Positions 49,933 through 64,000 of a DNA stretch of 64,000 nucleotides are shown here, piece by piece. Made by a program: the position numbers and the translations under genes. The DNA comes from Mumia flava (GTDB lineage: Bacteria; Actinomycetota; Actinomycetes; Propionibacteriales; Nocardioidaceae). Each line of letters opens with the position of its first letter. Within the stretch, counting starts at the first letter, position 1. The stretch is taken from positions 1,550,001 to 1,614,000 of the forward strand of contig NZ_PGEZ01000001.1 in assembly GCF_002797495.1 (NCBI RefSeq). The letters run 5' to 3'. The notes beneath the pieces were generated by a model. That model saw only the letters and a list, made by a program, of their open reading frames with translations. It was not told the origin of the DNA and made no database searches.

Positions 49933-49944
49933 CGTGACCACCTT

Positions 49945-49959
49945 TCCCGATTGTCGGGA
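49945..49959. promoter_or_regulatory. Operator candidate between hmgA and fahA
   Basis: TCCCGA-TTG-TCGGGA, a perfect palindrome of 6+6 with 3-base centre, 12 bases upstream of hmgA and 44 upstream of fahA. It lies between the hmgA ribosome site and the fahA promoter, so it could act on both. The IclR gene two positions to the right is a candidate regulator. Confidence 0.45.
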
Positions 49960-50002
49960 CGCGCTGTTCTCTTATCGGTCATCGTCGGTCTACGGTAGGG
50001 GC

Positions 50003-51313: not shown

Positions 51314-52004
51314 CCAGACCGCCCGAATCGTGGACGGGGCCGAGGGTTCGCAGACCCTCGAGCGTGGGCTCGCCGTGCTCGAAGCGGTCGCGGGCGCACC
51401 GAAGCCGATGACGGCGGCGCAGGTGGTCGCCGTGACCGGGCTGCACCGCTCGGTCACGCACCGGCTGCTGGTGTCGCTGCAGCGCACGGGTTTCGTCGTC
51501 CGCGACTCCGGCGGCTGCTTCCGCAGCGGGCCGACGCTGCACGGGCTCGTCGAGGTCACGCGTCCCTCGTTGCGTGAGCTCGCCGTCCCCGTGCTGCACG
51601 CGCTGGGCGCCGAGCTCGACGCCACCGCGACGCTGGTCGAGGCGATCGGCGGTGCGGCGGTCGCGACCGTCGTCGCCGAGCCGCCGGGCGACGGTCCCCG
51701 CTTCTCCTACCGGGTCGGCAACCGCGACCCGCTGGACCGCGGCGCCGGCGGACTTGCGGCGCTCGCGTCCGGTCCGCCGACCGCGGGCGAGGCGCCGCGG
51801 GTCGCCGAGGTCCGTGCCCGCGGCTGGGTGCGCACGGACTCCGAGCTCAACGCCGGCGCGTACGGGGTGGCGGCGCCGATCACGTCGGTCCCGGGCGTCC
51901 GCGCCGCCGTCACGATCGTCACCCACCGCGCCGACGTCGCCGACGCGGCGGTCGAGCCCGTACGGCGTGCCGCCGCGGCGCTCACCGACGCGACCCGCCG
52001 CTGA
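51297..52004 (+). CDS. IclR family transcriptional regulator, likely of the homogentisate genes
   Basis: 235 residues with winged HTH (T-A-A-Q-V-V-A-V-T-G-L-H-R-S-V-T-H-R-L-L-V-S-L) near 39-61 and a somewhat short IclR effector domain (A-T-A-T-L-V-E-A-I-G-G-A-A; G-A-Y-G-V-A-A-P-I near 189-197). It starts within the end of fahA, so it is co-translated with it. Probably regulates hmgA-fahA (inference). An 11-base perfect inverted repeat (CGATTCGGGCG, arms at 51271-51281 and 51320-51330) spans the overlap region. Confidence 0.9.
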   Translation: MAAIPDQTARIVDGAEGSQTLERGLAVLEAVAGAPKPMTAAQVVAVTGLHRSVTHRLLVSLQRTGFVVRDSGGCFRSGPTLHGLVEVTRPSLRELAVPVLHALGAELDATATLVEAIGGAAVATVVAEPPGDGPRFSYRVGNRDPLDRGAGGLAALASGPPTAGEAPRVAEVRARGWVRTDSELNAGAYGVAAPITSVPGVRAAVTIVTHRADVADAAVEPVRRAAAALTDATRR

Positions 52005-52020: not shown

Positions 52021-52971
52021 CTACAGCAGGCCCTTGACCCGCTCCACGGCGCTCGCGTGCTCGGCGACCAGCCGGTCGACCACCACCGACACCGGCTCGA
52101 CCGCGCCGATCGTGCCGAGGCCCTGGCCGGCGGCCCAGATGTCCTTCCACCGCCCGGCCGGCGAGGCCGCGGCGTCGTAGGTCCGCTCACCGTCGAACGC
52201 GAGCGCGTCGGGATCGAGCCCGTTCGCCACGAGGCTCGGGCGCAGCCACGACGCCGGGGTGCCGGTGATGCCGGCGCTGACGACGAGGTCGTCGACCTCG
52301 TGCGCGACCACCATCTCCTTGTAGTCCGCGACCGCGAGGCTCTCCGTCGTCGCGAGGAACCGCGTGCCGATCGACACGAGATCGGCGCCGGCGGCGACCG
52401 CGCCGAGCACACCCGCACCGTCGCTGATCCCGCCCCCGACCATCACGAGCCCGTCGAAGAACGAGCGGACCGCGGAGACGAACGCGAACGGCGACAGGTG
52501 ACCGGTGTGCCCGCCCGCGCCCGCGGCGACCAGACCCAGACCGTCGACCCCGGCCGCGACCGCCTTGCGGGCGAGCCGCAGGTCGACGACGTCGGCGACC
52601 ACGAGGCCCCCGTACCCGTGGACGGTGTCGATCGCCGGCACCGGCGAGCCCAGCGCGGTGATGACGATCGGCGGCCGGTACTCGGCGACCAGCCGCAGGT
52701 CGTCGGCGAGGCGGGTGTTGGTGCGGTGGGTCACGAGGTTGAGCGCCCACGGGGTGCCGGTCCCGCGCAACCCGTCGGTGATCGTGCCGAGCCACGTGTC
52801 GAGCTCGGCGGTGGTCCGGCAGTTCGGGGTCGGGAACGCACCGAGGATCCCGGCCCGACCGGCCGCGATCACGAGCTCCGGCCCGGACACCAGGAACATC
52901 GGCGCCGCCACGACCGGGAGCCTCAGCGAGTCCAGCACCTCCCGGATCCGCGCACCCTCAACCGTCGACAT
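52021..52971 (-). CDS. Nitronate monooxygenase/2-nitropropane dioxygenase family flavoprotein
   Basis: 316 residues, FMN-dependent TIM barrel: V-V-A-A-P-M-F-L-V-S-G-P near 19-30, L-V-A-A-G-A-G-G-H-T-G near 146-156, M-V-G-G-G-I-S-D-G-A-G-V near 176-187 and I-G-T-R-F-L-A-T-T-E near 201-210. In actinobacterial catabolic clusters relatives of this family (for example IpdC of cholesterol ring degradation) oxidise or reduce CoA thioesters, so it need not act on nitronates. Starts 14 bases before the end of the upstream ligase gene; last gene of the operon. Confidence 0.88.
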   Translation of the reverse strand: MSTVEGARIREVLDSLRLPVVAAPMFLVSGPELVIAAGRAGILGAFPTPNCRTTAELDTWLGTITDGLRGTGTPWALNLVTHRTNTRLADDLRLVAEYRPPIVITALGSPVPAIDTVHGYGGLVVADVVDLRLARKAVAAGVDGLGLVAAGAGGHTGHLSPFAFVSAVRSFFDGLVMVGGGISDGAGVLGAVAAGADLVSIGTRFLATTESLAVADYKEMVVAHEVDDLVVSAGITGTPASWLRPSLVANGLDPDALAFDGERTYDAAASPAGRWKDIWAAGQGLGTIGAVEPVSVVVDRLVAEHASAVERVKGLL

Positions 52972-54532
52972 GCTCGAACCTCCTGCGCAGCTCGTCCTTG
53001 CGGACCTTCAGGCTCGCGTTGCGGGGCAACGCGTCGACCACGTGGATCGCGGTCGGCTTCTTGTAGCCGGCGAGGCGCTCGCGTACGAACGCCGCCACCT
53101 GCTCGACATCGACACGCGACCCCGGTACGGGGACCACCGCCGCCGTCACGGTCTCGCCCCAGCGGGGATGCGCAACCCCGAACACGGCCGCGTCGGCGAC
53201 CCCGTCGGCCATCGCGAGGACGCGCTCGACCTCGGCCGGGTACACGTTCATCCCGCCGGACACGATCATGTCCTTCGCGCGACCACGGACGTACAGCCGT
53301 CCGGAGCCGTCGAGCGAACCGAGGTCACCGGTGCGGAGCCACCCGTCGACCAGCGCCTCGGCGGTCAGCTCCGGCTGGTCGAGGTAGCCGTCGAACAGCG
53401 TCTCGCTCGCGACCTCGATCTCGCCCACATCCCCCGGAGCGCACGCGGCGCCGTCGGGCCCGACGACCCGGATCTGCGCGATCGGGACCGGCCGACCGGC
53501 CGAGGCGAACACATCGTCCGCGCCGCCGGGCCCGACGCCCGACACAGCCACGCCACGCCAGTCCTCCGGCACGGTCGCGGTCACCGGCGCACCAGTCTCG
53601 GTCATACCGTACGTCTCGACGTAGCGGTCGCCGACCGCGTCGACCAGGTCCACGACGGTCTCACGCGGGGCCGACGACCCCGAGTGCAGCACGACGTCGA
53701 GGTGGTCGAGGACGGCGGGACGGGAACGGACCCGATCGGCGAAGGCGCTCATCAGCGGCGTCGGCGCGTAGGTGAACGTGCTGCGCTCGGCGGCCATCCG
53801 CTCGGTCCACGCATCCGGGTCGAGTCCCGCCATGAACGACAGCTCGCCGCCGACGTACAGGTGCGGGAGGACGACGCCCCAGATCGCGGCCGCGAACGCG
53901 AGCGTCCCGGTGAACGCGCACCGACTCCCCCACCGGATGCCGTCGTGGGACGGCATGTGGCGGACGATCCGCTCGAGGTTCTCGTGGGTGTGCACGACAC
54001 CCTTCGGTCGACCGGTCGTGCCGCTGGTGAAGCCGACGATCCCGGCCTGCTCGGGACTGTGCCGGACGCCCGGCAGCGCGGTCGACGCCCACGCCGTCGC
54101 CAGGTCCTCGTACCGCCAGGTCGTCGCCGGCGTCGCCGGGCCGATCGACACGACGTCCGCACCGCCACCGCGCAGCAGGTCGGCGAGCCGCTCGGCGTGC
54201 CCGGCGGTGTGCACGACCGCGCGCGGGCCTGCCAGGTCGAGCACCTCGGCGACCTCGGCGACCTGGAGACGGTCGTTGACCTGGACCGCGGTGGCGCCGG
54301 CGAGCCCGACTCCGAGGTACGCCTCGACGGCGTCGGCGCGGTCCTCCACGACCAGCGCGACCCGGTCTCCCGGACCGACCCCGCGATCGGCGAGCGCGTA
54401 CGCGAACGCCACCGCCCGGCGGTACGACTCCGCGTGCGTGCGCACCACGCCGTGGCCCCGGAACGCGACCGCGCCCGGGGCCGCCCGGCCCATCGCGGCG
54501 ACGACGGTCTGCGCCCATCCGTACGGCGGCAT
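52958..54532 (-). CDS. Acyl-CoA synthetase (AMP-forming), second ligase of the cluster
   Basis: 524 residues. G-F-T-S-G-T-T-G-R-P-K-G-V-V-H-T near 170-185, E-T-Y-G-M-T-E-T-G-A-P-V near 310-321, G-W-L-R-T-G-D-L-G near 397-405, R-G-R-A-K-D-M-I-V-S-G-G-M-N-V-Y-P near 418-434, and a Lys in the L-K-V-R-K-D-E-L-R end as catalytic candidate. The ATG at 54532 overlaps the stop of the preceding gene (TGATG), so translation is coupled; a longer frame upstream lies inside that gene. Substrate unknown, likely aromatic or alicyclic acid (inference). Confidence 0.9.
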   Translation of the reverse strand: MPPYGWAQTVVAAMGRAAPGAVAFRGHGVVRTHAESYRRAVAFAYALADRGVGPGDRVALVVEDRADAVEAYLGVGLAGATAVQVNDRLQVAEVAEVLDLAGPRAVVHTAGHAERLADLLRGGGADVVSIGPATPATTWRYEDLATAWASTALPGVRHSPEQAGIVGFTSGTTGRPKGVVHTHENLERIVRHMPSHDGIRWGSRCAFTGTLAFAAAIWGVVLPHLYVGGELSFMAGLDPDAWTERMAAERSTFTYAPTPLMSAFADRVRSRPAVLDHLDVVLHSGSSAPRETVVDLVDAVGDRYVETYGMTETGAPVTATVPEDWRGVAVSGVGPGGADDVFASAGRPVPIAQIRVVGPDGAACAPGDVGEIEVASETLFDGYLDQPELTAEALVDGWLRTGDLGSLDGSGRLYVRGRAKDMIVSGGMNVYPAEVERVLAMADGVADAAVFGVAHPRWGETVTAAVVPVPGSRVDVEQVAAFVRERLAGYKKPTAIHVVDALPRNASLKVRKDELRRRFEHVDG

Positions 54533-54972
54533 CAGTGACCGAAGTCCTCGCTGATCCCCATCCCCGCCAGCAGGGTGGGACGGTCGTAGTACTCCAGCCA
54601 CTCGGTCACCCGGCCGTCGGCCATCGCGAGCACGCCGACCACCGGGACCTCGCCGTGGTGGCCGTCGAACCAGAAGTCGTCGACCCGCTCGACGAACACG
54701 CGGCCGTCGATCACGCCGAGGGCCTTGATCCGCAGCGTGATGCTCTCGGCCTTCGAGCCCAGGATCGCCAGCCGCTCCTTGATCGCGTCACGTCCGACGA
54801 CCGGCTCCTGCATCACCGAGTGCAGAACGCCGTCGTCGGCGAACAGGTCGAGGACCGTGTCGAAGTCGATCGCGTCCCACGCGGCGAACATCCGTCGGGC
54901 CAGCGCGAGCTTCTCGTCGTCGTTCATCGGCGCAACGTCCCTCGACTCGTCGCTCGTCGGCGCGCCGCTCAT
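54532..54972 (-). CDS. Limonene-1,2-epoxide hydrolase/SnoaL (NTF2) fold protein
   Basis: 146 residues. L-A-L-A-R-R-M-F-A-A-W-D-A-I-D-F-D-T-V-L-D-L-F-A-D-D-G near 23-50, V-V-G-R-D-A-I-K-E-R-L near 58-68, and the C-terminal G-R-V-T-E-W-L-E-Y-Y-D-R-P-T-L-L-A-G-M-G fit the LEH family, in which an Asp-Arg-Asp triad opens epoxides; the D-D-F-W-F-D and E-Y-Y-D-R segments may supply Asp and Arg. Could also be an isomerase or hydratase. ATG 54972 overlaps the upstream ligase stop (ATGA), favouring it over the internal ATG at 54927. Confidence 0.8.
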   Translation of the reverse strand: MSGAPTSDESRDVAPMNDDEKLALARRMFAAWDAIDFDTVLDLFADDGVLHSVMQEPVVGRDAIKERLAILGSKAESITLRIKALGVIDGRVFVERVDDFWFDGHHGEVPVVGVLAMADGRVTEWLEYYDRPTLLAGMGISEDFGH

Positions 54973-56699
54973 GCCCGCTCCGTGACCGACTCGCGGCGCA
55001 GCTCGCGCTTGAGGATCTTGCCCACGGGGTTGCGCGGCAGCTCCTCGCGCACCTCGAGCCGCTCGGGCAGCTTGAACGACGCGATCTTCTGCTCCTTGAG
55101 GAACGCCAGGAGCTCGTCGAGCGTCAGCGAGGCGTCGGGCTTCAGCGTGACGACGGCGGCGACCCGCTCCCCGAGCACCTCGTCGGGGTCGCCGATCACC
55201 GCCACGTCCGCGACCGCCGCGTGTGCGCCGATCAGGCCCTCGAGCTCCGCCGGGGCGATGTTCATCCCACCGCGGATCACCAGGTCCTTGGCCCGGTCCA
55301 GGTAGTGGAGGAACTGCCCGTCGTCCCCGGCGATCTCGAACAGGTCGCCGGTCTTGAGATAGCCCTCGTCGTCGAACGGGCTGGGCCGCAGCTCCGGGTG
55401 CAGGTAGCCGGCGAACACGGTCGGCCCCGCGATGTGCAGCTCGCCGCTCCGGCCGGGGTCGGTGATCTCCTCGCCGGTGAGCACGTCGACGAGCTTGGTG
55501 CTCATCCACTCCGAGACCCGCGACGACCACGTCACGCCCGGGGCGCCGTACCGCGGGAAGAACTGCGCCCGCTCGACCGGGTCCGGGAAGTCCTCGGCGC
55601 TCGAGAGCAGGCCGATGCCTTCGTTCGAGCCGAAGAAGTTGATCACGGGGATCCCACGGTCCTGCCACCCCTTGACCATCGACGGCTGCAGCGGGACCGA
55701 GCCGGAGCCGATCCGCGTCAGGCTCGACAGGTCGACCTTGGCGAGCAGGTCCTCGTCGTGCAGCAGCATCCACAGCAGCGCCGGGGGCGCGACCGTGTAC
55801 GTCACGCGCTCGACCGCGATCTGGGCGAAGAACGTCGGCAGGTCGAACGGGTGGTGCTGGACGAGGACCGCACCGGTGCGCAGCCACGGCAGGAACATCC
55901 CGTTGATCCCCGCCATGTTGACCATCGGGAACGGGTTGAGCAGTACGTCGTCGCTCGTCACCCGCGGCGCGTCGACGGTCGCCCAGGCGATCGCGAGCCA
56001 GTCGTAGTGGCAGCGCGGGACGCCCTTCGGCTCGCTCTCGGTGCCCGACGTCCAGCAGATCGTCAGGCAGTCGTTCGGGTCGTTCGGGTCCTCGGCGCGG
56101 CGGCCCGCGACCGCGTCGGTGTCCGCCGCGGAGGCAGCGGACGGCACCAGCCGTACGACGTCGGCCGGCGTCGCGTCGGCCTCCTCACCGGGCAGCCCCA
56201 GCGCGACGACGGCCCGCAGGCTCGGGATCCGGTCCCGGGCCGCGGCCGCGTCGGCCGCCGGGTTGCGACCGGCGAAGCCCTCGGTGGTGACGAAGACCGC
56301 GAACTCGGCCTGGTTGGCCATGCCGACGAGCTCGCGCTCGCGGTACTGCATCGGCAGCGGCGACACGACGACCCCGAGGGACCAGGCCGCGAGGTAGACC
56401 TCGACCAGCTCGATCGTGTTGGGCAGCTGGACGCCGAGGACGTCGCCACGACCGAGACCGAGGTCGAGCAGGCGCGCCGCGAGGTGCGTCACCTCGGCGT
56501 CGAGCTCGTTCCAGGTCAGCCGTCGCGGTTCGCTGCCGAGCAGAGCCGCACGGTTCGCCGGGTCGACGACCGCCAGCGCGTCGCCACGCAGGCGGACCTG
56601 CTCGGCGAACAGCGCGTCCGTCGTCTCGTCGCTCCACCAGCCCTTGCCGGTGTAGTCGGCCACGCGCTCCGGCGTGTGCAGGCCACGTCCTCGTGCCAT
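54969..56699 (-). CDS. Acyl-CoA synthetase (AMP-forming), first ligase of the cluster
   Basis: 576 residues. Core motifs: C-W-T-S-G-T-E-S-E-P-K-G-V near 220-232 (P-loop, with E instead of T/G in the middle), N-F-F-G-S-N-E-G near 360, Y-L-K-T-G-D-L-F near 455, D-R-A-K-D-L-V-I-R-G-G-M-N-I-A-P near 478-493 and [11 protein letters not shown] with catalytic Lys at the end. The layout resembles cyclohexanecarboxylate/medium-chain-type ligases. ATG 56699 has GAGGAG upstream. Follows the binding protein gene by 85 bases. Confidence 0.9.
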   Translation of the reverse strand: MARGRGLHTPERVADYTGKGWWSDETTDALFAEQVRLRGDALAVVDPANRAALLGSEPRRLTWNELDAEVTHLAARLLDLGLGRGDVLGVQLPNTIELVEVYLAAWSLGVVVSPLPMQYRERELVGMANQAEFAVFVTTEGFAGRNPAADAAAARDRIPSLRAVVALGLPGEEADATPADVVRLVPSAASAADTDAVAGRRAEDPNDPNDCLTICWTSGTESEPKGVPRCHYDWLAIAWATVDAPRVTSDDVLLNPFPMVNMAGINGMFLPWLRTGAVLVQHHPFDLPTFFAQIAVERVTYTVAPPALLWMLLHDEDLLAKVDLSSLTRIGSGSVPLQPSMVKGWQDRGIPVINFFGSNEGIGLLSSAEDFPDPVERAQFFPRYGAPGVTWSSRVSEWMSTKLVDVLTGEEITDPGRSGELHIAGPTVFAGYLHPELRPSPFDDEGYLKTGDLFEIAGDDGQFLHYLDRAKDLVIRGGMNIAPAELEGLIGAHAAVADVAVIGDPDEVLGERVAAVVTLKPDASLTLDELLAFLKEQKIASFKLPERLEVREELPRNPVGKILKRELRRESVTERA

Positions 56700-56784
56700 G
56701 TCGTTCTCCTCGTCTGGGTCGGGGTGCGGTGCTGCGTGCCCGGTGATGACCGGACCGGGCACGCAGCACCGGGTCAGGAACGGC

Positions 56785-58065
56785 TCACTCGTAGTTCGAC
56801 GAGATGTCGATGACCTCGCCCGCCTCGACGAAGGTCTTGGCCGCCGCGTCCCACGTGTACGGCTGGAAGGCGAGGATGCCGAACGCCTGCGTGGGGCTCA
56901 TCTGGAACGTGATGCCGTCGATGAACATCGGCGGCTGGTAGTCCTGCGTCCGCGCGGCCTCCATGATCGACAGACGCGACAGGCCGTCCTCGGACTCCGA
57001 CGCGCGGTGGAAGTTGTCGATCATCAGGTCGGCGATCGCCCAGCCGTTGACGGTGTAGCTGTTGGTCGGCGAGTCGGCCCCGTTGGCCTCGGACTGCTCG
57101 AGGTACTCCGTCACGGCCGGGTCGTCGGCGAACGCCTCGTTGGCCGGGTCCTTCAGCCAGCGCAGGATCTGCTGGCCGTCGGCGGCCTCACCGGCGGGCT
57201 CGTACAGCGTGGCGCCGTCGGCGCAGTTCGACGGCTGGATCACGGTCTCCGGCTTCCAGCCGACGCGGCCGATCGCCTGGGTGAGCGCGAGGCAGTCGGT
57301 GGTCACACCGGCGTCCACGAGGATCTGGGCGCCGCTGGCCTTCAGGGCCGATGCGGCCGTGTTCGGGTCGGTGAGCGGCTCGGTGGCGACGATCTCGAAG
57401 TCGGTGCCCTCGACGGCCTTCTTGAAGCCGTCGGCGTAGCCCTGACCGGACTCGGTCTGGTTCTCGGCGAGCGCGACCGTCGCGCCGTCCGGGTACTTCT
57501 CCTTCAGACCCTCGACGACGACCTCCATCTCGACGTCGGCGGAGGGGAGGTACTCGGTCGTCCACGGGAAGTTCTCGATGTCGCGGTACGCCGGGACGCT
57601 CGCCTGCCCGAAGAGAAGCGGGACGCAGGCGTCGTTCTGGTCGTCGGCGACCGCGTCGAGCTGGCCGGAGCCGAAGGTGTCGAGGACGTCGACGCCCTCG
57701 GACTGGATCAGCTCGCCGACGTTCGCCTTCGCACGCTCGGGGTTGAAGGCGTCGTCCTTGACGATCACCTCGAGGTCGACGCCGTCGATCCCGCCGGCCT
57801 CGTTCTCGACGGCGAAGCGGGCCTCCATCCCCTCGATCACGTTGCCGACGGCGTCGGCGAGCGGACCGGAGGTCGCCGCGGACCAGCCGACCTTGAGCGT
57901 GTCGGTGATCTCGGCGGTGGCGGCGTCGGGGTCGACGCAGTCGTCGGCGGAGATCACACCGGAGGCGGACGCGGAGTCGTCGCTCGCACCGGAGTTCGAC
58001 CCGCACGCGGACAGGATGAGCAGCGAGGCCGAGACGGCCGCTGCGGTCTTCAGGAGACGGTTCAT
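56785..58065 (-). CDS. ABC transporter substrate-binding lipoprotein, Liv/branched-chain amide type
   Basis: 426 residues with lipoprotein signal: hydrophobic residues 3-18 then L-S-A-C-G (lipidated Cys near residue 20). Type I periplasmic fold: L-K-V-G-W-S-A-A-T-S-G-P-L-A-D-A near 55-70, then two alpha/beta lobes; P-N-T-A-A-S-A-L-K-A-S-G-A-Q-I near 228-242. Binds the ligand imported by the adjacent Liv-type permeases. AAGGAA precedes ATG 58065. Size and disposition resemble proteins for aromatic or hydrophobic acids, but ligand is not predictable. Confidence 0.9.
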   Translation of the reverse strand: MNRLLKTAAAVSASLLILSACGSNSGASDDSASASGVISADDCVDPDAATAEITDTLKVGWSAATSGPLADAVGNVIEGMEARFAVENEAGGIDGVDLEVIVKDDAFNPERAKANVGELIQSEGVDVLDTFGSGQLDAVADDQNDACVPLLFGQASVPAYRDIENFPWTTEYLPSADVEMEVVVEGLKEKYPDGATVALAENQTESGQGYADGFKKAVEGTDFEIVATEPLTDPNTAASALKASGAQILVDAGVTTDCLALTQAIGRVGWKPETVIQPSNCADGATLYEPAGEAADGQQILRWLKDPANEAFADDPAVTEYLEQSEANGADSPTNSYTVNGWAIADLMIDNFHRASESEDGLSRLSIMEAARTQDYQPPMFIDGITFQMSPTQAFGILAFQPYTWDAAAKTFVEAGEVIDISSNYE

Positions 58066-58114
58066 CAGGGGTTCCTTCGTCATCGAGGAGGGGGTGGGAC
58101 AGGTCGGGCCCGGG

Positions 58115-59275
58115 TCAGCGGGACGCGGTCAGGGGTTCGTCGCCCGGTGGTGAGGGTGGTTCCGGTGGCGGGTCGTGGGACGCGGCCGTACGGCGCGGGT
58201 GGTCCGACGGCACGATGGCCACGACCTTGCGGACGAGCAGGCCGAGGCGACCGACGATCCCCTCGGGCATCAGGAAGACGAGAGCGATCAGCAGCACGCC
58301 GAAGACGACGCCGGACAGCGGGCCCTCGGCCCACGAGGCCGTCCAGTAGGGCAGAAAGACCACCGCGAAGGCCCCGACCAGCGGGCCGATCTGGGTGGCG
58401 ATGCCACCGAGGACGAGACCCGTGACGAGCTCGATCGCCTTCATCAGGGTGAACGAGCCGTCCGGGGACAGCGCGCCGATGTACATCCCGAAGAGCGAGC
58501 CGGCGAGCCCGGTGATCGCTCCCGAGATGCCGAAGGCCAGGATCTTGGTCCGCGCGATGCTCACGCCGTTGGCGGCCGCCGCGATCTCGTTGTCGCGGGT
58601 CGCCCGCATCGCGATCCCGAAACGGCTCTTCACCAGGTTGCGGACGAGCAGCATCACGATCGCGAGGACGGCGGCCGACAGCCAGAACATCCAGATCGCC
58701 CGCTCGCCGCGGACCAGGCCGGTCCACTCCGGCGGCGCGAGGTAGCGCGACCGTACGACCATCCCGGCGGCGCCGCCGGTGAGCTCCTCGGCCCGCCGGA
58801 CGATCTCCGGGAAGGACACCGCGACCGCCAGCGTCACCAGCGCGAGGTAGAGACCGTGGATCCGCAGGGACGGCAGCCCGACGAGGAGCCCGAGCACGAA
58901 TGCGAAGAGCACCGCGAGCGGGATCGTGGCCAGCGGTGCGAACTCGTACCGCACGATCAGGATCCCCGTCGTGTAGGCGCCGAGGCCGAAGAAGGCCGAG
59001 TGCCCGATCGAGAGCAGACCCGTGTACCCCGTGACGATGTTCAGTCCCACGACCGCGATCGCGATGATGAAGACGTTGGTGAACTGGCCGAGCCGGAAGG
59101 TCGGCTGACCCGCGGCCCACAGCAGGGCGACGACCGTCAGCGCGATCAGCACGGCCTGCACCGCCCGGTGCCTGGGGCTGTTCTGGACGATCAGGAAGCG
59201 CGGGCCGCGGGGCTTGCCGGCCGCGGTTCCGCTGCGTTCGTTCGACATCGAGGTCGTCTCGTCGATGGTCGTCAT
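58115..59275 (-). CDS. Branched-chain-type ABC transporter permease (LivM-like)
   Basis: 386 residues: polar N-terminus of about 35, then around ten helices with G-Y-T-G-L-L-S-I-G-H-S-A-F-F-G-L-G-A-Y near 86-104 (LivM signature) and A-T-R-D-N-E-I-A-A-A-A-N-G-V near 227-240, plus a Pro-rich cytoplasmic tail of about 25. Its start overlaps the LivH-like stop (ATGA). ATG 59275 preferred. Part of the five-subunit importer; transported compound inferred from cluster only. Confidence 0.92.
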   Translation of the reverse strand: MTTIDETTSMSNERSGTAAGKPRGPRFLIVQNSPRHRAVQAVLIALTVVALLWAAGQPTFRLGQFTNVFIIAIAVVGLNIVTGYTGLLSIGHSAFFGLGAYTTGILIVRYEFAPLATIPLAVLFAFVLGLLVGLPSLRIHGLYLALVTLAVAVSFPEIVRRAEELTGGAAGMVVRSRYLAPPEWTGLVRGERAIWMFWLSAAVLAIVMLLVRNLVKSRFGIAMRATRDNEIAAAANGVSIARTKILAFGISGAITGLAGSLFGMYIGALSPDGSFTLMKAIELVTGLVLGGIATQIGPLVGAFAVVFLPYWTASWAEGPLSGVVFGVLLIALVFLMPEGIVGRLGLLVRKVVAIVPSDHPRRTAASHDPPPEPPSPPGDEPLTASR

Positions 59276-60168
59276 ACCCTCACCACTCGCTTGGTTCCGA
59301 ACAGTCCGTTGGGTCGCACGAAGAGGATCGCGACGATGATGAACAGCGCCGACGTCTGCTGGAGCGCACCGCCGATGAAGGAGACGTAGCCGGTCAGCAT
59401 CGCCTCGAGCACGCCGATCGTGATCCCGCCGACGACGGCGCCGACCAGGCTGTCGAGGCCGCCGAACAGGGCTGCCGCGGACGCCGCGATGAAGATGTGG
59501 AACATCGTCGTGAGTCCGAGCTGCTCGGCGGCGAGCGGCGTGACGAGCACGCCGGCCAGGGCGCCGATCGCGCCCGAGAGCCCCCAGCCGACCGCCAGGA
59601 TGCGGCTGGTCCGGACGCCGGCGAGCGTCGCCGACTCGGAGTTGTCGGCCACGGCCCGCATGTGCAGACCGAGCTTGGTGTGCCGGAAGAGCAGCGTCAT
59701 CAGCACGAGCAGCACGATCAGCGCGCCCCAGACCGTGAGCGCGTCGTAGTAGAGCCGCGCGCCGGCGAGCGAGACGTAGTCGTCCAGGCCGTTCGGGAAG
59801 AGGCTCGGCATGATCTTGGTCTCGCTGCCCCAGATCACCCCTGCCAACGAGTTCAACCCGGTGAACAACCCGAGGGCGACGATCAGGACCGCCATGTCGT
59901 TGCGCCGCTGGACGGGCCTGATCAGCATCCGCTCGATCATCGCGCCGAGCACGAAGCCCGTGAGCAGGGCCGCGACGATCGCGATCCAGACCGGGAACGA
60001 CTCGGTGGTGAGCCACCAGGCGATGAAGGTCGTGAAGAGCGCGAGCTCGCCCTGCGCGAAGTTCAGGGTGCCGGTGCCGCGGAAGACGACGACCAGTGCG
60101 AGCGCCAGCAGCGCGTAGACCGACCCGTTGGTCAGGCCGATGATGAGACGTTCGAGGAAGAGTTCCAC
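59272..60168 (-). CDS. Branched-chain-type ABC transporter permease (LivH-like)
   Basis: 298 residues, eight or so helices. L-F-L-E-R-L-I-I-G-L-T-N-G-S-V-Y-A-L-L-A-L-A-L near 3-25 and R-G-T-G-T-L-N-F-A-Q-G-E near 31-42 are the LivH signature; R-A-V-A-D-N-S-E-S-A near 173-182 is the coupling loop. GTG 60168 has a GGAGC ribosome site; the longer frame upstream belongs to another gene in a different frame. Lies 8 bases after the LivF-like stop and overlaps LivM-like start. Confidence 0.92.
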   Translation of the reverse strand: MELFLERLIIGLTNGSVYALLALALVVVFRGTGTLNFAQGELALFTTFIAWWLTTESFPVWIAIVAALLTGFVLGAMIERMLIRPVQRRNDMAVLIVALGLFTGLNSLAGVIWGSETKIMPSLFPNGLDDYVSLAGARLYYDALTVWGALIVLLVLMTLLFRHTKLGLHMRAVADNSESATLAGVRTSRILAVGWGLSGAIGALAGVLVTPLAAEQLGLTTMFHIFIAASAAALFGGLDSLVGAVVGGITIGVLEAMLTGYVSFIGGALQQTSALFIIVAILFVRPNGLFGTKRVVRV

Positions 60169-60176
60169 GGGGGCTC

Positions 60177-60884
60177 CTAGTAGCCGAGGTACGCGCTGCG
60201 CACCGCGTCGTCGGACCGGAACTCGGCCGGTGTGCCGGCCGCGGCGATCGTGCCGACGTCGAGCAGGTAGACCCGGTCGGCGAGATCCATCGCGAGCTCC
60301 GCGTTCTGCTCGACGATCAGCAGGGCCGTGCCGTCGGTCTCGTTGATCCGGGCCAGGGTCGCGAACAGCTCCTGCACGACGATCGGTGCCAGGCCGAGGC
60401 TGGGCTCGTCGCAGAGCAGGAGACGGGGGCGGCTCATCAGCGCGCGGGCGACCGCGAGCATCTGCTGCTCGCCGCCGGACAGCGACCCCGCGAGCTGCGC
60501 GGAGCGTCGGCCGAGGACCGGGAAGACCTCGGCCCACCGCTCGATGTCGGCCTCGATCTCGGCCTTGTCGTCGCGCGACGCGGCGCCCACGCGCAGGTTG
60601 TCGAGCACGGTGAGCTGGCCGAGCGTGCCCCGGCCCTGGGGCACCAGGCTGATGCCTCCGGCGACGACGCGCTCGGGCCGCGAGCTCAGCGGGCTCCCGT
60701 CGAGCTCGATCGTGCCGCGTCGGCCGATCAAGCCGGCGAGCGCCCGCATCGTGGTCGTCTTGCCGGCGCCGTTCGCGCCCAGCACCACGACCACCTCGCC
60801 GGCGTCGACGTCGAGGTCGATGCCGTGCAGGACGTCGGCGGAGCCGTAGCCGGCACGCAGTCCTTCGACGTGCAGGAGACTCAT
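60177..60884 (-). CDS. Branched-chain-type ABC transporter ATP-binding protein (LivF-like)
   Basis: 235 residues. Walker A L-G-A-N-G-A-G-K-T-T-T near 36-46, signature L-S-G-G-E-Q-Q-M-L-A near 134-143, Walker B L-L-L-C-D-E-P-S-L-G-L-A near 155-166 and H-loop position replaced by I-V-E-Q-N-A-E-L-A near 190-198, as in LivF. It hydrolyses ATP to drive import. Coupled to livG-like by ATGA overlap and to livH-like by 8-base spacing. Confidence 0.94.
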   Translation of the reverse strand: MSLLHVEGLRAGYGSADVLHGIDLDVDAGEVVVVLGANGAGKTTTMRALAGLIGRRGTIELDGSPLSSRPERVVAGGISLVPQGRGTLGQLTVLDNLRVGAASRDDKAEIEADIERWAEVFPVLGRRSAQLAGSLSGGEQQMLAVARALMSRPRLLLCDEPSLGLAPIVVQELFATLARINETDGTALLIVEQNAELAMDLADRVYLLDVGTIAAAGTPAEFRSDDAVRSAYLGY

Positions 60885-61693
60885 GCCGCCCTCCCGAGGT
60901 ACGCGGCGACGACCGCCGGGTCGTCGCGGACCTGCTCCGGGCTGCCCTCGAAGATCTTCTGGCCGAAGTCCAGCGCGACCACGTGGTCGCTGATCCCCAG
61001 GACCAGCCCCATGTGGTGCTCGACGAGCAGCGCCGCGAAGCCGTAGTCGTCACGCAGCGAGACGATCAGCTCACCGAGGTCCTTGACCTCGCTGTGGGTG
61101 AGGCCGCCGGCGGGCTCGTCGAGCAGCAGCAGGCTGGGGCGCGCCATCAGCGCACGGGCCAGCTCGACGCGCTTGAGCGTGCCGAACGGCAGGCCGGCGG
61201 CCGGCGCCTCGGCGACCTCGAGGAGGTCGAGCCGCTCGAGCAGCTCCCACGCGCGGCGTCGGAGCTCGTTGGTCCGGCGCCGCGCCGGCGGCCAGGCGAG
61301 CATCCCGCTGGTCGCGCCGACCCGGCCCTGCGAGGTGCCGCCGGCCATCGCGTTGTCGAAGACCGACATCCCGCCGAACAGCGCCAGGTTCTGGAACGTG
61401 CGCGCGATGCCGAGGCCCGCGAGGTGGTGCGGGCGGATCCTGAGCAGGTCGTCGCCGCGCCAGACGATCTCGCCGGTGTCCGGCTGGTAGATCCGCGTGA
61501 TGCAGTTGAACAGCGTGGTCTTGCCTGCGCCGTTGGGGCCGATCAGGCCGAGGATCTGCCCGGGGAGGACGTCGAGTCCCACGCCGTCGAGCGCCTTCAC
61601 ACCGCCGAACGCGATGGAGACGTCGCGCAGCCTGAGCAGCGCGTCGCCGGCGTCGCCGACCGACGGGGAGTCGGTGCTGGGCCCTGGTGTCAC
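60881..61693 (-). CDS. Branched-chain-type ABC transporter ATP-binding protein (LivG-like), first gene of the cluster operon
   Basis: 270 residues. Walker A I-G-P-N-G-A-G-K-T-T near 51-60, the Y-Q-P-D-T-G-E-I-V-W loop, G-I-A-R-T-F-Q-N-L-A-L-F near 93-104 (LivG Q-loop), signature-equivalent L-P-F-G-T-L-K-R-V-E-L-A-R-A-L near 164-178 replacing LSGGQ, and Walker B L-L-L-L-D-E-P-A-G-G-L near 186-196. The start is placed at GTG 61693 because AGGAAGG lies 7 bases upstream; ATG 61699 and GTG 61714 are alternatives. It begins a tight series of nine minus-strand genes down to the flavoprotein at 52021. Confidence 0.92.
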   Translation of the reverse strand: MTPGPSTDSPSVGDAGDALLRLRDVSIAFGGVKALDGVGLDVLPGQILGLIGPNGAGKTTLFNCITRIYQPDTGEIVWRGDDLLRIRPHHLAGLGIARTFQNLALFGGMSVFDNAMAGGTSQGRVGATSGMLAWPPARRRTNELRRRAWELLERLDLLEVAEAPAAGLPFGTLKRVELARALMARPSLLLLDEPAGGLTHSEVKDLGELIVSLRDDYGFAALLVEHHMGLVLGISDHVVALDFGQKIFEGSPEQVRDDPAVVAAYLGRAA

Positions 61694-61714
61694 GTGCATG
61701 CCTTCCTGGGTCAC

Positions 61715-61833
61715 GTCGATGAGCAGCCTGCTGACACTTCAATTAGCAGTGTGATAGAGATTACTACAGCAAGCAGAGTGAGTCCGTCAACCGTAGTAAG
61801 GCGGACCGTTCTCCCTCGAAAGGACGCGTACCC
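61715..61833. promoter_or_regulatory. AT-richer divergent control region between the importer operon and the NTF2/SDR operon
   Basis: About 45 of these bases (61735-61780) are markedly AT-richer than the rest of the window. On the minus strand TTGACG (about 61784-61789) with an 18-base spacer and TAGTAA is a promoter candidate for the importer operon. Inverted words TTACTAC (61761-61767) and GTAGTAA (61793-61799) and ACACT/AGTGT around 61734-61752 are possible regulator sites. No regulator gene is adjacent in the window. Confidence 0.45.
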
Positions 61834-62433
61834 GTGAGCGACCCACGACCGACCGCTGCGCCTCGACCGGACGCCGCACCCCGACCAGACGCCGTCGACG
61901 ACCGTCTGCTCGACCTGCTGGCGAAGCAGGAGATCCAGGAGGTGCTCACCCGCTACCTCCGTGCCGTCGACCGGGGCGACGTCGACGGACTGCGCGCCTG
62001 CTACCTGCCGGGTGCCACGGAGGACCACGGCGGCGTCTTCGAGGGCCCGGCCGAGGAGTACGTCGCGTCGATCGCGCAGAGCCTGACGCACCCCCGCGCG
62101 GTCACCACGCACGCGATGACGAACGTCCTGGTCGAGGTCGACGGGACCCGCGCCCGCGCCGAGTCGTACGTCCTGGCCTTCGCCCGGGTCCGCCGCCCCG
62201 ACGGCGGGGTCGGCGACACGCTCACCTCGGCCCGCATGGTCGACGAGCTGGGCTACTCCGACGGGCGCTGGGGCATCCGGCACCGCGCGCTGCGCTGGGA
62301 CTGGAACCACGACATGGAGCGCTCCGAGGGCTGGGTGTTCGGCATGCTCGTCGAGCGCGACCGGATGAAGCGCAGCGCGAAGTTCCCCGACGACCTGGTC
62401 TACGCCGACTCGCTGACCGGAGCCGGCGCATGA
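61834..62433 (+). CDS. SnoaL-like/NTF2-fold polyketide-cyclase-family protein
   Basis: 199 residues. After a Pro/Arg-rich N-terminal stretch (1-20) the SnoaL_4-type pattern K-Q-E-I-Q-E-V-L-T-R-Y-L-R-A-V-D-R-G-D-V-D-G-L-R-A-C near 31-56 is followed by H-A-M-T-N-V-L-V-E-V near 93-102 and W-G-I-R-H-R-A-L-R-W-D near 146-156. Members are dehydratases, isomerases or ring-hydroxylating dioxygenase helpers. GTG 61834 has AAAGGA upstream. Coupled to the SDR gene by ATGA. The second such fold in this catabolic cluster. Confidence 0.85.
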   Translation: MSDPRPTAAPRPDAAPRPDAVDDRLLDLLAKQEIQEVLTRYLRAVDRGDVDGLRACYLPGATEDHGGVFEGPAEEYVASIAQSLTHPRAVTTHAMTNVLVEVDGTRARAESYVLAFARVRRPDGGVGDTLTSARMVDELGYSDGRWGIRHRALRWDWNHDMERSEGWVFGMLVERDRMKRSAKFPDDLVYADSLTGAGA

Positions 62434-63200
62434 GCGCGCTGCGGGGCGCTTCCATCGAGGGCGCACGGATCGTGGTCACGGGCGCCAACCGCGGGATCGG
62501 GCTCGCCTTCGTCACCGAGGCGCTCGAGCGTGGCGCCGCCACCGTGTACGCCGGGGTGCGCGACGTCGACTCCGTGACCGACGAGCTGGCCGCGACCGGC
62601 GCCGAGATCGTGCCGCTCGAGGTCACCAGCGACGCCGACGTCGAAGCGGCCGCGAAGGCGTGCGCGGACGCGAACGTCGTCGTGAACAACGCCGGACTGC
62701 ACGCCGGGGACCGGCTGATCGAGGCGAGCGACCCCGACGCCGCGCGCGCCGAGATGGAGGTCAACTACTTCGGCCCGCTGCGGACGATCCGTGCGTTCGC
62801 CCCCGTGCTGCGCGAGAACGGCGGCGGCTCGTTCGTCAACGTGCTGTCGGTCGCCGCGATCGCCCCGACCGCGTTCATGGGTGGCTACTCGCCGTCGAAG
62901 GCGGCGGCGCTCTACCTGGGCGGGATCGCCCGCGCGGAGCTCGAGCGCTACAACATCTCGGTGACCTCGCTGGTCGTCGGATCGGTCGACACCCGGATGG
63001 CCTCGCACGTCGAGGGCGACAAGGAGGACCCGCGCGACATCGCCGCCGTCGGCCTCAAGGCCATGGAGCGCGGCGAGTGGGTGTGCGACACCGACCGCAT
63101 GGCGGTCGAGTCGCGTGCACGCCTGGCACGCGACCCGGTGCGGTACGAGCGTGGGCTCGGCAAGCTGCTGTTCGCCACCGAGCTGAGGACGAAGCCGTGA
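62430..63200 (+). CDS. Short-chain dehydrogenase/reductase
   Basis: 256 residues. Cofactor motif V-V-T-G-A-N-R-G-I-G-L-A near 15-26, V-V-N-N-A-G near 85-90, Ser in V-N-V-L-S-V-A-A-I near 138, and Y-x-x-x-K in G-G-Y-S-P-S-K near 151-157. The Ser-Tyr-Lys set fits an active classical SDR. Alcohol or ketone substrate probably a CoA ester or ring intermediate of the pathway (inference). Overlaps upstream gene by ATGA and downstream gene by GTGA. Confidence 0.93.
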   Translation: MSALRGASIEGARIVVTGANRGIGLAFVTEALERGAATVYAGVRDVDSVTDELAATGAEIVPLEVTSDADVEAAAKACADANVVVNNAGLHAGDRLIEASDPDAARAEMEVNYFGPLRTIRAFAPVLRENGGGSFVNVLSVAAIAPTAFMGGYSPSKAAALYLGGIARAELERYNISVTSLVVGSVDTRMASHVEGDKEDPRDIAAVGLKAMERGEWVCDTDRMAVESRARLARDPVRYERGLGKLLFATELRTKP

Positions 63201-64000
63201 GCGGGCGGATCCGGGTCGCGCAGTGGGCGACCGGCGCCGTCGGCAAGACGATCCTGCGGGGCGTCCTCGACCGCGACGACCTCGAGCTGGTCGGTCTGCT
63301 GGTCTACGGCGACCGCAAGGTCGGTCGGGACGCAGGCGACATCGCCCGGCGCGATCCGACCGGCGTCCTGGCCACCCGCGACGTGGACGAGATCCTCGCG
63401 GCGCAGCCCGATGTCGTCATGCACGCACCACGGCTCCAGGTCCCGTACGAGACCCACGACGACGACCTGCTGCGTCTGCTCGGCGCGGGAGTCAACGTGA
63501 TCACGACCGCCGGGCAGCACTTCCCGCGGGCGCACGGCAGCGAGCGCGAGCAGATGTTCACCGAGGCGTGCGAGAAGGGCGGGAGCACGCTCTTCGGGGT
63601 CGGGGTCAGCCCCGGCGTGATCGGCGAGCGGCTCACGCTGGCGCTGACCGGCGCGAGCGTGACGCTCGACCGGATCACGATCGACGAGGTGCTGGACGCC
63701 CGCGCGATGCCGGACCCGGACTTCGCGTTCACCGTGATGGGGATGGGCTCGGACCCGGCGACGCTGGACGGCTCCGGGCCGCTGCCGTCGCTGTACGCGT
63801 CGCTGTACCTGGAGACGATCGCGTTCATGTGCGAGCGGATGGGCGTCACGTACGACGAGGTCGTCTCCGACCACCGGGTCGTCCCCGCCTCGCGGGACCT
63901 CGAGGTCGCGGCCGGGCACATCGCCGCCGGGACCGTCGGATCCACCGAGTGGCGCTGGCACGCGATGCGGGACGGGAAGCCGTTCCTCACCCTCGCGATC
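63197..64000 (+). CDS. Dihydrodipicolinate reductase-like (DapB-fold) NAD(P) enzyme, 5' part only
   Basis: 268 codons from a GTG that overlaps the SDR stop, open to the right edge. The start V-S-G-R-I-R-V-A-Q-W-A-T-G-A-V-G-K-T contains the Rossmann loop (T-G-A-V-G); later V-M-H-A-P-R-L-Q and G-V-G-V-S-P-G-V-I-G-E-R-L near 134-146. This matches the DapB-like family of NAD(P)H-dependent amine dehydrogenase-type enzymes that also appears in mycobacterial and rhodococcal steroid or fatty-acid loci. The 3' end lies outside. Third gene of the divergent operon; function unresolved. Confidence 0.8.
   Translation, partial: MSGRIRVAQWATGAVGKTILRGVLDRDDLELVGLLVYGDRKVGRDAGDIARRDPTGVLATRDVDEILAAQPDVVMHAPRLQVPYETHDDDLLRLLGAGVNVITTAGQHFPRAHGSEREQMFTEACEKGGSTLFGVGVSPGVIGERLTLALTGASVTLDRITIDEVLDARAMPDPDFAFTVMGMGSDPATLDGSGPLPSLYASLYLETIAFMCERMGVTYDEVVSDHRVVPASRDLEVAAGHIAAGTVGSTEWRWHAMRDGKPFLTLAI

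What the first reader, a model, noticed from the sequence alone, without database searches (positions are those of the whole stretch)
52021..64000. Nine-gene importer and CoA-ligase operon divergent from an NTF2/SDR/DapB-fold operon: probable catabolic system of unknown substrate
On the minus strand LivG, LivF, LivH, LivM and binding-protein-like genes run into two acyl-CoA ligases, an epoxide-hydrolase/NTF2-fold protein and an NMO-type flavoprotein with overlaps of 1-14 bases. The divergent strand has an NTF2-fold, SDR and DapB-fold genes, each with a 4-base overlap. Two ligases and two NTF2-fold enzymes in one locus suggest two activation steps or two related acids. The presence of an LEH-like protein and an IpdC-family relative points to alicyclic or terpenoid acids, not proven.
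Basis: partly seen in the sequence, partly recalled or inferred. Interest (0 to 1): 0.75.

Follow-up and report, generated by a model that had tools for sequence, protein, structure and literature searches.

The report
Imported-acid breakdown regulon with alkene-cleaving oxygenase
Some soil actinobacteria carry a conserved set of about 22 genes, apparently switched together by one regulator, that seems to import an unidentified acid, tag it with coenzyme A and break it down with the help of an iron enzyme that cuts carbon-carbon double bonds; the substrate is still unknown.

Summary
The nine-gene minus-strand operon (52021-61699) and its divergent partner are real. Past the window edge lie a further ligase and a second divergent module: carotenoid-cleavage-type oxygenase (CCO), SCP2-type thiolase, HxlR regulator, fourth CoA ligase, VOC protein, second thiolase, SDR, DUF1295, thioesterase. 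Both modules recur in 7 of 7 named loci examined. An operator-like site of module B's divergent gap is also in module A's gap (window 61762); these are the only two matches (up to 2 mismatches) in the 4.4-Mb genome. Across CCO loci the site follows HxlR: 21 of 23 with it, 0 of 3 without. I read this as one HxlR-controlled 22-gene catabolic regulon: LivFGHMK-type import of an organic acid, CoA activation, beta-oxidation-like steps and Fe/O2 alkene cleavage. The CCO is unusual: four iron histidines kept, one second-shell Glu replaced by Gln in 17 of 18. The substrate is unproven; an apocarotenoid-like or other conjugated cyclic acid fits best, lignostilbene less well, branched-chain amino acids badly. 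New variant of a known kind.

The parts
52021..52971 (-). NMO/FabK-fold flavoprotein (PF03060)
   Evidence: 65.3 bits, cut-off 28; FMN-type FabK 5gvj, 1.6e-24; relatives lie beside Lig1 and a CCO in Cupriavidus and Sphingopyxis
52958..54532 (-). acyl-CoA ligase Lig2
   Evidence: adenylation motif TSGTTGRPK; present in 5 of 7 related loci
54532..54972 (-). LEH/SnoaL-fold protein NTFa
   Evidence: LEH 37.1 bits, cut-off 24; triad R-x-D...D kept in 8 of 8; present in 7 of 7 related loci
54969..56663 (-). acyl-CoA ligase Lig1, nearest in sequence to aryl-acid ligases
   Evidence: nearest solved structures are salicylate- and dihydroxybenzoate-AMP ligases; co-occurs with CCO
56785..58083 (-). LivK-type substrate-binding lipoprotein
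   Evidence: Peripla_BP_6 129.9 bits; model and fold matches; Asn286 invariant in 10 of 10
58115..59275 (-). LivM-type permease
59272..60168 (-). LivH-type permease
60177..60884 (-). LivF-type ATPase
60881..61699 (-). LivG-type ATPase
61762..61781 (+). shared operator-like site (TACTACAGCAAGCAGAGTGA)
   Evidence: related sites in 8 of 8 module A gaps compared
61735..61754 (+). second, weaker site 27 bp away in the same gap
   Evidence: 12.0 bits in the 82-kb scan; a like second site is listed in 4 of the 7 relatives
61834..62433 (+). SnoaL_4-fold protein NTFb (accessory)
   Evidence: 82.5 bits, cut-off 24; absent in 3 of 7 related loci
62430..63200 (+). SDR1 (PRK08264-type SDR)
   Evidence: present in 7 of 7 related loci
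63197..64000 (+). DapB/2,4-diaminopentanoate-dehydrogenase-like oxidoreductase; the gene continues to 64252 in the genome
   Evidence: all matched families below their cut-offs

Best explanation
One HxlR-controlled catabolic regulon of 22 genes in two neighbouring divergent modules. A LivFGHMK-type ABC importer brings in an organic acid. Up to four CoA ligases activate the acid and its later fragments. An FMN-type flavoprotein, SDRs, NTF2-fold and VOC-fold proteins, a DUF1295 reductase-like membrane protein and two thiolases shorten and rearrange the acyl-CoA in a beta-oxidation-like way. A carotenoid-cleavage-type Fe(II) oxygenase cuts a conjugated C=C bond of the substrate or of an intermediate. 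The HxlR protein, encoded in the regulon, probably binds the site in both divergent gaps and is released by the substrate or its CoA ester. Shown: gene content, conservation, shared site, co-occurrence of site and HxlR. Inferred: direction of transport, order of reactions, repression, substrate. Favoured substrate class: conjugated cyclic acids such as apocarotenoid- or ionone-type terpenoid acids; conjugated aryl acids are not excluded.
For: Module A core kept in 7 of 7 and module B core in 7 of 7 named loci, side by side in five. Shared site: a matrix from the 12 module B sites scores window 61758 at 26.8 bits, the best non-training hit in 82 kb, next outside that gap 9.3; only two hits with up to 2 mismatches in the own genome, one in each divergent gap. 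In 27 other genome entries, 27 hits have at most 1 mismatch: 25 lie at the cluster (23 read, 2 placed only by distance to cluster genes), 1 in a second cluster of the same gene families, 1 in an unrelated gene. Site and HxlR: 21 of 23 with, 0 of 3 without (one locus set aside). Lig1 is in 10 of 394 genomes, 9 of them with CCO at threshold, and the tenth has a 42% CCO in the same cluster as Lig1. Lig1, NMO, CCO, thiolase and HxlR relatives also cluster in Cupriavidus and Sphingopyxis. The CCO profile is nearest to a carotenoid 9,10-dioxygenase (339 bits), then lignostilbene dioxygenase (258). A site-bearing locus of another genome pairs a CCO with a PaaN-type aldehyde dehydrogenase and, divergently, a MaoC hydratase. 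The own genome has no squalene/phytoene-synthase-type gene, so an own C40 carotenoid is an unlikely substrate.
Against: No substrate, activity or expression data. No acyl-CoA dehydrogenase and no aldehyde dehydrogenase among the 22 genes; the NMO and genes elsewhere must supply these steps. The Glu-to-Gln change could have altered the CCO's activity. In 10 of 10 loci read from the presumed mycobacterial genus, CCO-ThlX stands without importer and Lig1, so the pair can serve something else. G381 has a 52% binding protein with LivMHFG and no CCO in about 33 kb read. The site is absent in L048 and weak in L047 although HxlR is there, and no strong site was found in the Cupriavidus and Sphingopyxis loci. 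The backwards control pattern gives 4 hits in the own genome, so two hits alone would not be remarkable; their places are. 10 of 14 cluster-bearing genomes do have a squalene/phytoene-synthase-type gene. PaaN is in only 3 of 14, and in two of these away from the cluster.
Confidence: 0.62

Rival explanations
1. A lignin-type aromatic dimer or stilbenoid pathway: an NTF2-fold lyase makes a stilbene, the CCO cuts it as a lignostilbene dioxygenase does, ligases take the acids on.
For: NTF2-fold LdpA/PcfL plus lignostilbene dioxygenase is a described pairing in sphingomonads (PMC12997858, abstract and passages). Lig1 is nearest to aryl-acid ligases. Many top fold matches of the binding protein are aromatic-acid receptors.
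Against: The Lys134 of lignostilbene dioxygenases (PMC8191317, passages) aligns with Tyr152 in 12 of 18 and with Ser in 6 of 18 CCOs of this subfamily. The CCO profile scores a carotenoid 9,10-dioxygenase 81 bits higher. No ring-cleavage or O-demethylase gene among the 22 genes. NTFb is dispensable.
Confidence: 0.2
2. A steroid or bile-acid side-chain or ring pathway.
For: SCP2-type thiolase with its catalytic residues; the DUF1295 protein also matches Steroid_dh just above its cut-off (26.7 bits, cut-off 22.6); ketosteroid-isomerase-like folds and SDRs.
Against: The NCBIfam steroid-24-oyl-CoA synthetase model scores 168-272 bits for the four ligases, cut-off 750. A CCO is not part of the steroid pathways I know (recalled).
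Confidence: 0.1
3. An ordinary branched-chain amino acid importer beside unrelated lipid genes.
For: LivFGHMK architecture; leucine-type receptors among the fold matches.
Against: Conserved linkage with ligases and CCO; shared site; the Glu that binds the amino group in Leu-type receptors (role recalled) aligns with Asn286, invariant in 10 of 10 and in at least 90% when the distant L057 protein is added.
Confidence: 0.04
4. Turnover of the cell's own carotenoids, the importer being coincidental.
For: A CCO is present; 10 of 14 cluster-bearing genomes have a squalene/phytoene-synthase-type gene.
Against: 4 of 14 have none at E <= 1e-5, including the window's own 99.75%-complete genome; the importer operon shares the site with the CCO operon.
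Confidence: 0.04

Closest known systems
LivFGHMK-type (HAAT) ABC importers of organic acids, such as those with the R. palustris aromatic-acid receptors
   Same: Five-part architecture; fold of the binding protein
   Different: 12-21% identity to the listed solved receptors; ligand unknown; tied to a CCO regulon
Carotenoid cleavage dioxygenases (RPE65 family): carotenoid 9,10-dioxygenase, apocarotenoid-15,15'-oxygenase
   Same: Family match (RPE65, 414.9 bits), four iron His in 18 of 18
   Different: Second-shell Glu (place of ACO Glu150 / LSD4 Glu135) is Gln in 17 of 18 and Arg in 1; mostly next to an SCP2-type thiolase gene
Lignostilbene dioxygenases with NTF2 lyases (LdpA-LsdA pathway)
   Same: An NTF2-fold protein and a CCO in one pathway
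   Different: Lys134 absent; CoA ligases, thiolases and importer added; no evidence of phenolic substrates
Abscisic acid breakdown by Rhodococcus sp. P1Y
   Same: An apocarotenoid acid whose side chain is shortened by an actinobacterium, enzymes unknown (PMC9599779, passages)
   Different: No gene link; the strain's genome was not searched here
   Same: NMO fold (recalled for IpdC)
   Different: Nearest matches are FabK-type enzymes; relation to IpdC not tested

Membership tests
LivFGHMK ABC importer | two ATPases, two permeases, one type I binding protein in one operon | tested here: met
Branched-chain amino acid (LivJ/LivK) receptor | acidic residue that binds the ligand's amino group (role recalled) | tested here: not met
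   Glu of 4n0q aligns with Asn286, invariant in 10 of 10
Carotenoid cleavage oxygenase (RPE65 family) | four iron-binding His | tested here: met
   H186, H234, H298, H481 invariant in 18 of 18
Carotenoid cleavage oxygenase (RPE65 family) | three second-shell carboxylates | tested here: not met
   The place of Glu150/Glu135 is Gln153 in 17 of 18, Arg in 1; E369 is invariant and E423 in 90% or more. Family membership rests on sequence; I call it a variant subfamily
Carotenoid cleavage oxygenase (RPE65 family) | oxidative alkene cleavage | not testable with these tools
   needs an assay
Lignostilbene dioxygenase | Lys134 that binds the 4-hydroxyl group (PMC8191317, passages) | tested here: not met
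   Tyr in 12 of 18, Ser in 6 of 18; Phe59 and Tyr101 were not tested
Limonene-1,2-epoxide hydrolase | Arg-x-Asp...Asp catalytic triad (recalled) | tested here: met
   8 of 8
Limonene-1,2-epoxide hydrolase | Tyr53 and Asn55 that hold the water (recalled) | tested here: not met
   Leu and Ser in 8 of 8
SCP2-type thiolase | nucleophilic Cys, HDCF motif, His of GGHPVG | tested here: met
   C91, H305-D306-C307, H355 invariant in 27 of 27; 3zbg at 6.1e-43
Nitronate monooxygenase fold | Pfam NMO above cut-off | tested here: met
   65.3 bits, cut-off 28
IpdC | specific relation to mycobacterial IpdC | not tested
   no IpdC sequence was compared
HxlR regulator | HxlR domain above cut-off | tested here: met
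   114.9 bits, cut-off 20.8, two stretches
HxlR regulator | binds the proposed operator | not testable with these tools
   only co-occurrence: 21 of 23 with HxlR, 0 of 3 without

The most novel reading that the evidence does not exclude
A previously undescribed CoA-linked aerobic pathway for an apocarotenoid-type acid, perhaps abscisic acid or a retinoid-like acid, in which a Glu-to-Gln carotenoid cleavage oxygenase works on a CoA-pathway intermediate together with a dedicated SCP2-type thiolase; the HxlR-CCO-thiolase trio that stands alone in presumed mycobacteria would be the stripped core of the same pathway under the same operator.
Probability: 0.2. Interest if true: 0.8.

Novelty: new variant of a known kind. 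Interest (0 to 1): 0.58.

Why it matters
It turns a vague 'importer plus ligases' into a defined regulon with a testable operator, regulator, importer and signature enzyme, found in several actinobacterial genera and, as a smaller enzyme set, in Cupriavidus and Sphingopyxis. It gives a handle on an uncharacterised subfamily of carotenoid cleavage oxygenases with an altered iron second shell, and on the orphan CCO-thiolase pair of presumed mycobacteria. If the substrate is an apocarotenoid such as abscisic acid, it would supply missing genes for a soil process known so far from metabolites.

Tried and rejected
Homogentisate genes next door (HGD, FAH, IclR; 48739-52004) as part of the system: among the 7 loci they are close by only in the Mumia one, so rejected.

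Looking for a paper on the cluster: the listings showed none that describes it (titles and starts of abstracts seen, HxlR with 'carotenoid oxygenase', gave 0 papers). Abscisic acid (listing): PMC12509608 read whole and passages of PMC12349427, PMC9599779 and PMC6938937 name no genes of the pathway; in the last the words carotenoid, CoA and thiolase do not occur.

Plasmid hits for the DapB-like protein gave no telling context. NMO hits on plasmids show the wider NMO group in other acyl-CoA clusters, so NMO alone is not a marker. The scan for exact gapped palindromes returned nothing; the site was seen by eye in the printed gaps and then tested with a matrix and genome scans, so its discovery was not blind. 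Fold matches of the binding protein do not tell aromatic-acid from amino-acid or other ligands. One structure job, most fold searches and one structure-sequence search were left unused.

Rows set aside: L030 (the fetched stretch ends at CCO, so HxlR cannot be scored; with it the script counts 1 of 4 without HxlR and p 0.013); without it 21 of 23 against 0 of 3, hypergeometric 10/2600, worked by hand; leaving out also the 8 scored loci that trained the matrix, 13 of 15 against 0 of 3. In one search G001 and G058 have identical coordinates and are taken as one assembly, so its 10 of 10 genomes are 9 distinct; G059 and G239 likewise. The three 394-genome draws are taken as the same draw because counts and listed handles agree; this was not proved. 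Row 11 (L057) of alignment A1 was dropped before the structure job.
Full report
What is there. The window is G000:C1:1550001-1614000 of a 4.4-Mb genome. The genome entry G001, told to be of the same genus, has the same CCO coordinates as the Mumia xiangluensis record behind L014, so the genus is very probably Mumia. Gene calls were made with a small codon-bias script of mine, not with a standard gene finder; starts are approximate.

Beyond the window. The adjoining stretch L010 (window numbering continued) adds Lig3 64252-65862 (+, same operon as the DapB-like gene), then VOC-fold 65941-66669 (-), Lig4 66666-68225 (-), HxlR 68222-69217 (-), CCO of the RPE65 family 69261-70778 (-), SCP2-type thiolase ThlX 70820-72049 (-), and divergently Thl2 72273-73484, SDR2 73481-74374, DUF1295 74402-75232 and acyl-CoA thioesterase 75232-76125 (+). 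The VOC protein's matches are below their cut-offs. Module A is the window part plus Lig3 (13 genes); module B is the rest (9 genes).

Conservation. A scan of named genomes with the binding protein gave 7 distinct loci: Mumia xiangluensis, Janibacter melonis, two Humibacillus xanthopallidus strains, Aeromicrobium sp. Root472D3, Actinocorallia populi, Actinomadura craniellae. LivG-F-H-M-SBP-Lig1-NTFa divergent from SDR1...Lig3 is kept in 7 of 7; the DapB-like gene in its place in 6 of 7 (Janibacter has a 41% relative beside HxlR); Lig2 and NMO in 5 of 7; NTFb in 4 of 7. HGD and FAH are near in 1 of 7. ThlX-CCO-HxlR-Lig4 divergent from Thl2-SDR2-DUF1295 is kept in 7 of 7 (Janibacter with the DapB-like gene inserted), the thioesterase in 5 of 7. 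The two modules adjoin in Mumia, Janibacter, both Humibacillus and, with one gene between, Actinocorallia; they lie about 8 kb apart in Actinomadura and about 25 kb in Aeromicrobium (from the coordinates).

Wider occurrence. CCO orthologs (E <= 1e-130) are in 28 of 394 genomes of the class, 18 of the 28 in one genus, f7/g36, that I take for Mycobacterium from family and size (the tool names none). In the 10 g36 loci read, CCO-ThlX stands without importer or ligases, 7 with HxlR and 3 without. M. tuberculosis has a putative CCO Rv0913c (PMC5133782, passage); that it is this ortholog, with Rv0914c as the thiolase, is recall and was not tested. In other genomes CCO-ThlX sits with LivGFHM, SBP, Lig1, NMO, DapB-like or Thl2 genes in other arrangements. 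On plasmids, Lig1 relatives at E <= 1e-60 occur in 6 records; in 5 a CCO is close by: two C. necator by coordinates (one also read), C. basilensis, C. necator NH9, Sphingopyxis granuli; the sixth, Haloterrigena, has none in the stretch shown. In three of these NMO, Lig1, CCO, a thiolase 44-47% identical to Thl2 and a regulator 27-31% identical to HxlR cluster.

Co-occurrence numbers. Lig1 (E <= 1e-120) is in 10 of 394, 9 with CCO at threshold (in G333 on another contig); the exception G416 has CCO (42%), Lig1, ThlX, Thl2 and HxlR relatives in one cluster. SBP (E <= 1e-60) is in 8 of 394, 7 with CCO; the exception is G381, with no CCO in about 33 kb read. Fisher p 1.1e-10 and 3.3e-8; these ignore shared ancestry, so they overstate the strength.

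Operator-like site. The gaps between ThlX and Thl2 carry TACTACAACTAANAGAGTAA-like sites in 10 of 10 loci compared (12 sites), and the module A gaps carry related sites (at least 14 of 19 letters) in 8 of 8. A matrix from the 12 module B sites gives, in the joined 82-kb stretch, its own training site 50.1, then window 61758 (core 61762) 26.8, then 12.0 in the same gap, then 9.3 elsewhere. With the 20-base core the maximum over 171,886 control positions is 9.0, against 26.0 for the gap; 2000 shuffles of the gap reached at most 22.9, mean 1.0. In the whole genome the pattern with up to 2 mismatches has 2 matches, window-equivalent 72196 (0 mismatches) and 61762 (1); the backwards control pattern has 4, so the number is not remarkable but the places are. 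In 27 further genome entries, hits with at most 1 mismatch number 27. By coordinates 25 lie at the cluster: 23 inside stretches that I read, 2 (G005:450390, G165:574811) placed only by their distance to known cluster genes. One (G166:C14) is in a divergent gap of a second cluster with the same gene families, one (G274) inside an unrelated gene. Six entries have no such hit: three g36 genomes with CCO-ThlX but no HxlR in the stretch read, and three of the window's genus without SBP at E <= 1e-20. Per CCO locus: 21 of 23 with HxlR (45% or more) have a site of 20 bits or more near a cluster gene, 0 of 3 without; L047 is weak (14.4) and L048 has none. No strong site was found in the Cupriavidus and Sphingopyxis loci. 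Arms TACT/AGTA make an imperfect inverted repeat; the HxlR protein has two HxlR stretches. That HxlR binds the site is inferred.

Enzymes. CCO: four His kept in 18 of 18; the residue aligned with ACO Glu150 and LSD4 Glu135 is Gln in 17 of 18 and Arg in the Sphingopyxis protein; the place of Lys134 is Tyr in 12 and Ser in 6. PMC8191317 (passages) says the four His and three acidic residues are conserved in all CCDs characterised, and PMC12051055 (passages) says three His bond to second-sphere carboxylates. Nearest solved relatives by profile: carotenoid 9,10-dioxygenase 339 bits, lignostilbene dioxygenase 258, NCED 237. ThlX: SCP2-type thiolase, catalytic residues in 27 of 27. Thl2 has Ser where I recall the second catalytic Cys of thiolases (read), so its activity is less sure. 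Lig1-4 carry adenylation motifs. NTFa: LEH triad without the two water-holding residues. Binding protein: type I receptor fold (model pLDDT 75.8, pTM 0.75), closely ranked matches to amino-acid, fatty-acid and aromatic-acid receptors.

Reading. Import, CoA activation, flavin and SDR redox steps, hydration by NTF2/VOC-type or genome-encoded hydratases, thiolysis, and alkene cleavage. In another genome a site-bearing cluster has CCO with a PaaN-type aldehyde dehydrogenase, and nearby a MaoC hydratase, an enoyl-CoA hydratase and a luciferase-like monooxygenase, which fits aldehyde products entering CoA metabolism; PaaN is found in 3 of 14 cluster-bearing entries, in two of them away from the cluster, so it is not general. 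No squalene/phytoene-synthase-type gene in 4 of 14, the own genome included, argues for an outside substrate. The substrate class is my weakest step: terpenoid-like about 0.35, aryl/stilbenoid about 0.2, rest open (judgement).

Known or new. Nearly every part belongs to a known family; the combination, its operator-like site and the Gln-type CCO subfamily were not found described in the searches, which cover open-licence papers only. I file it as a new variant of a known kind (acid-catabolic regulon with LivFGHMK importer).

Noticed in passing
L010:7261-8778 (CCO, window-numbered 69261-70778) and relatives: A second-shell iron residue, Glu in characterised carotenoid oxygenases, is Gln in 17 of 18 members of this subfamily; the solved apocarotenoid oxygenase chain 5kjd has the same Glu-to-Gln difference from 2biw.
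   Followed up: partly
L067 (G166:C14:26000-43069): A second site-bearing cluster in another genome: DapB-like, Thl2, SDRs, PaaN-type aldehyde dehydrogenase, a 42% CCO, VOC, enoyl-CoA hydratase, luciferase-like monooxygenase, DUF1295.
   Followed up: partly
L039, L041, L042: In three presumed mycobacterial loci without HxlR and without the site, a different gene of about 160 residues follows CCO in the place of HxlR; not identified.
   Followed up: no
window 48739-52004: Homogentisate dioxygenase, fumarylacetoacetase and an IclR regulator adjoin the locus; among 7 related loci only in the Mumia one.
   Followed up: yes
L010:10273-11484 (Thl2): Thl2 reads VSGAAG near its C-terminus where thiolases usually have the second catalytic Cys motif (read; the usual motif is recalled).
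   Followed up: no
L051-L053 (Cupriavidus and Polaromonas plasmids): CCO genes of this type lie with alpha/beta hydrolases and, in L051-L053, tripartite-tricarboxylate-type binding proteins instead of a LivFGHMK importer.
   Followed up: partly
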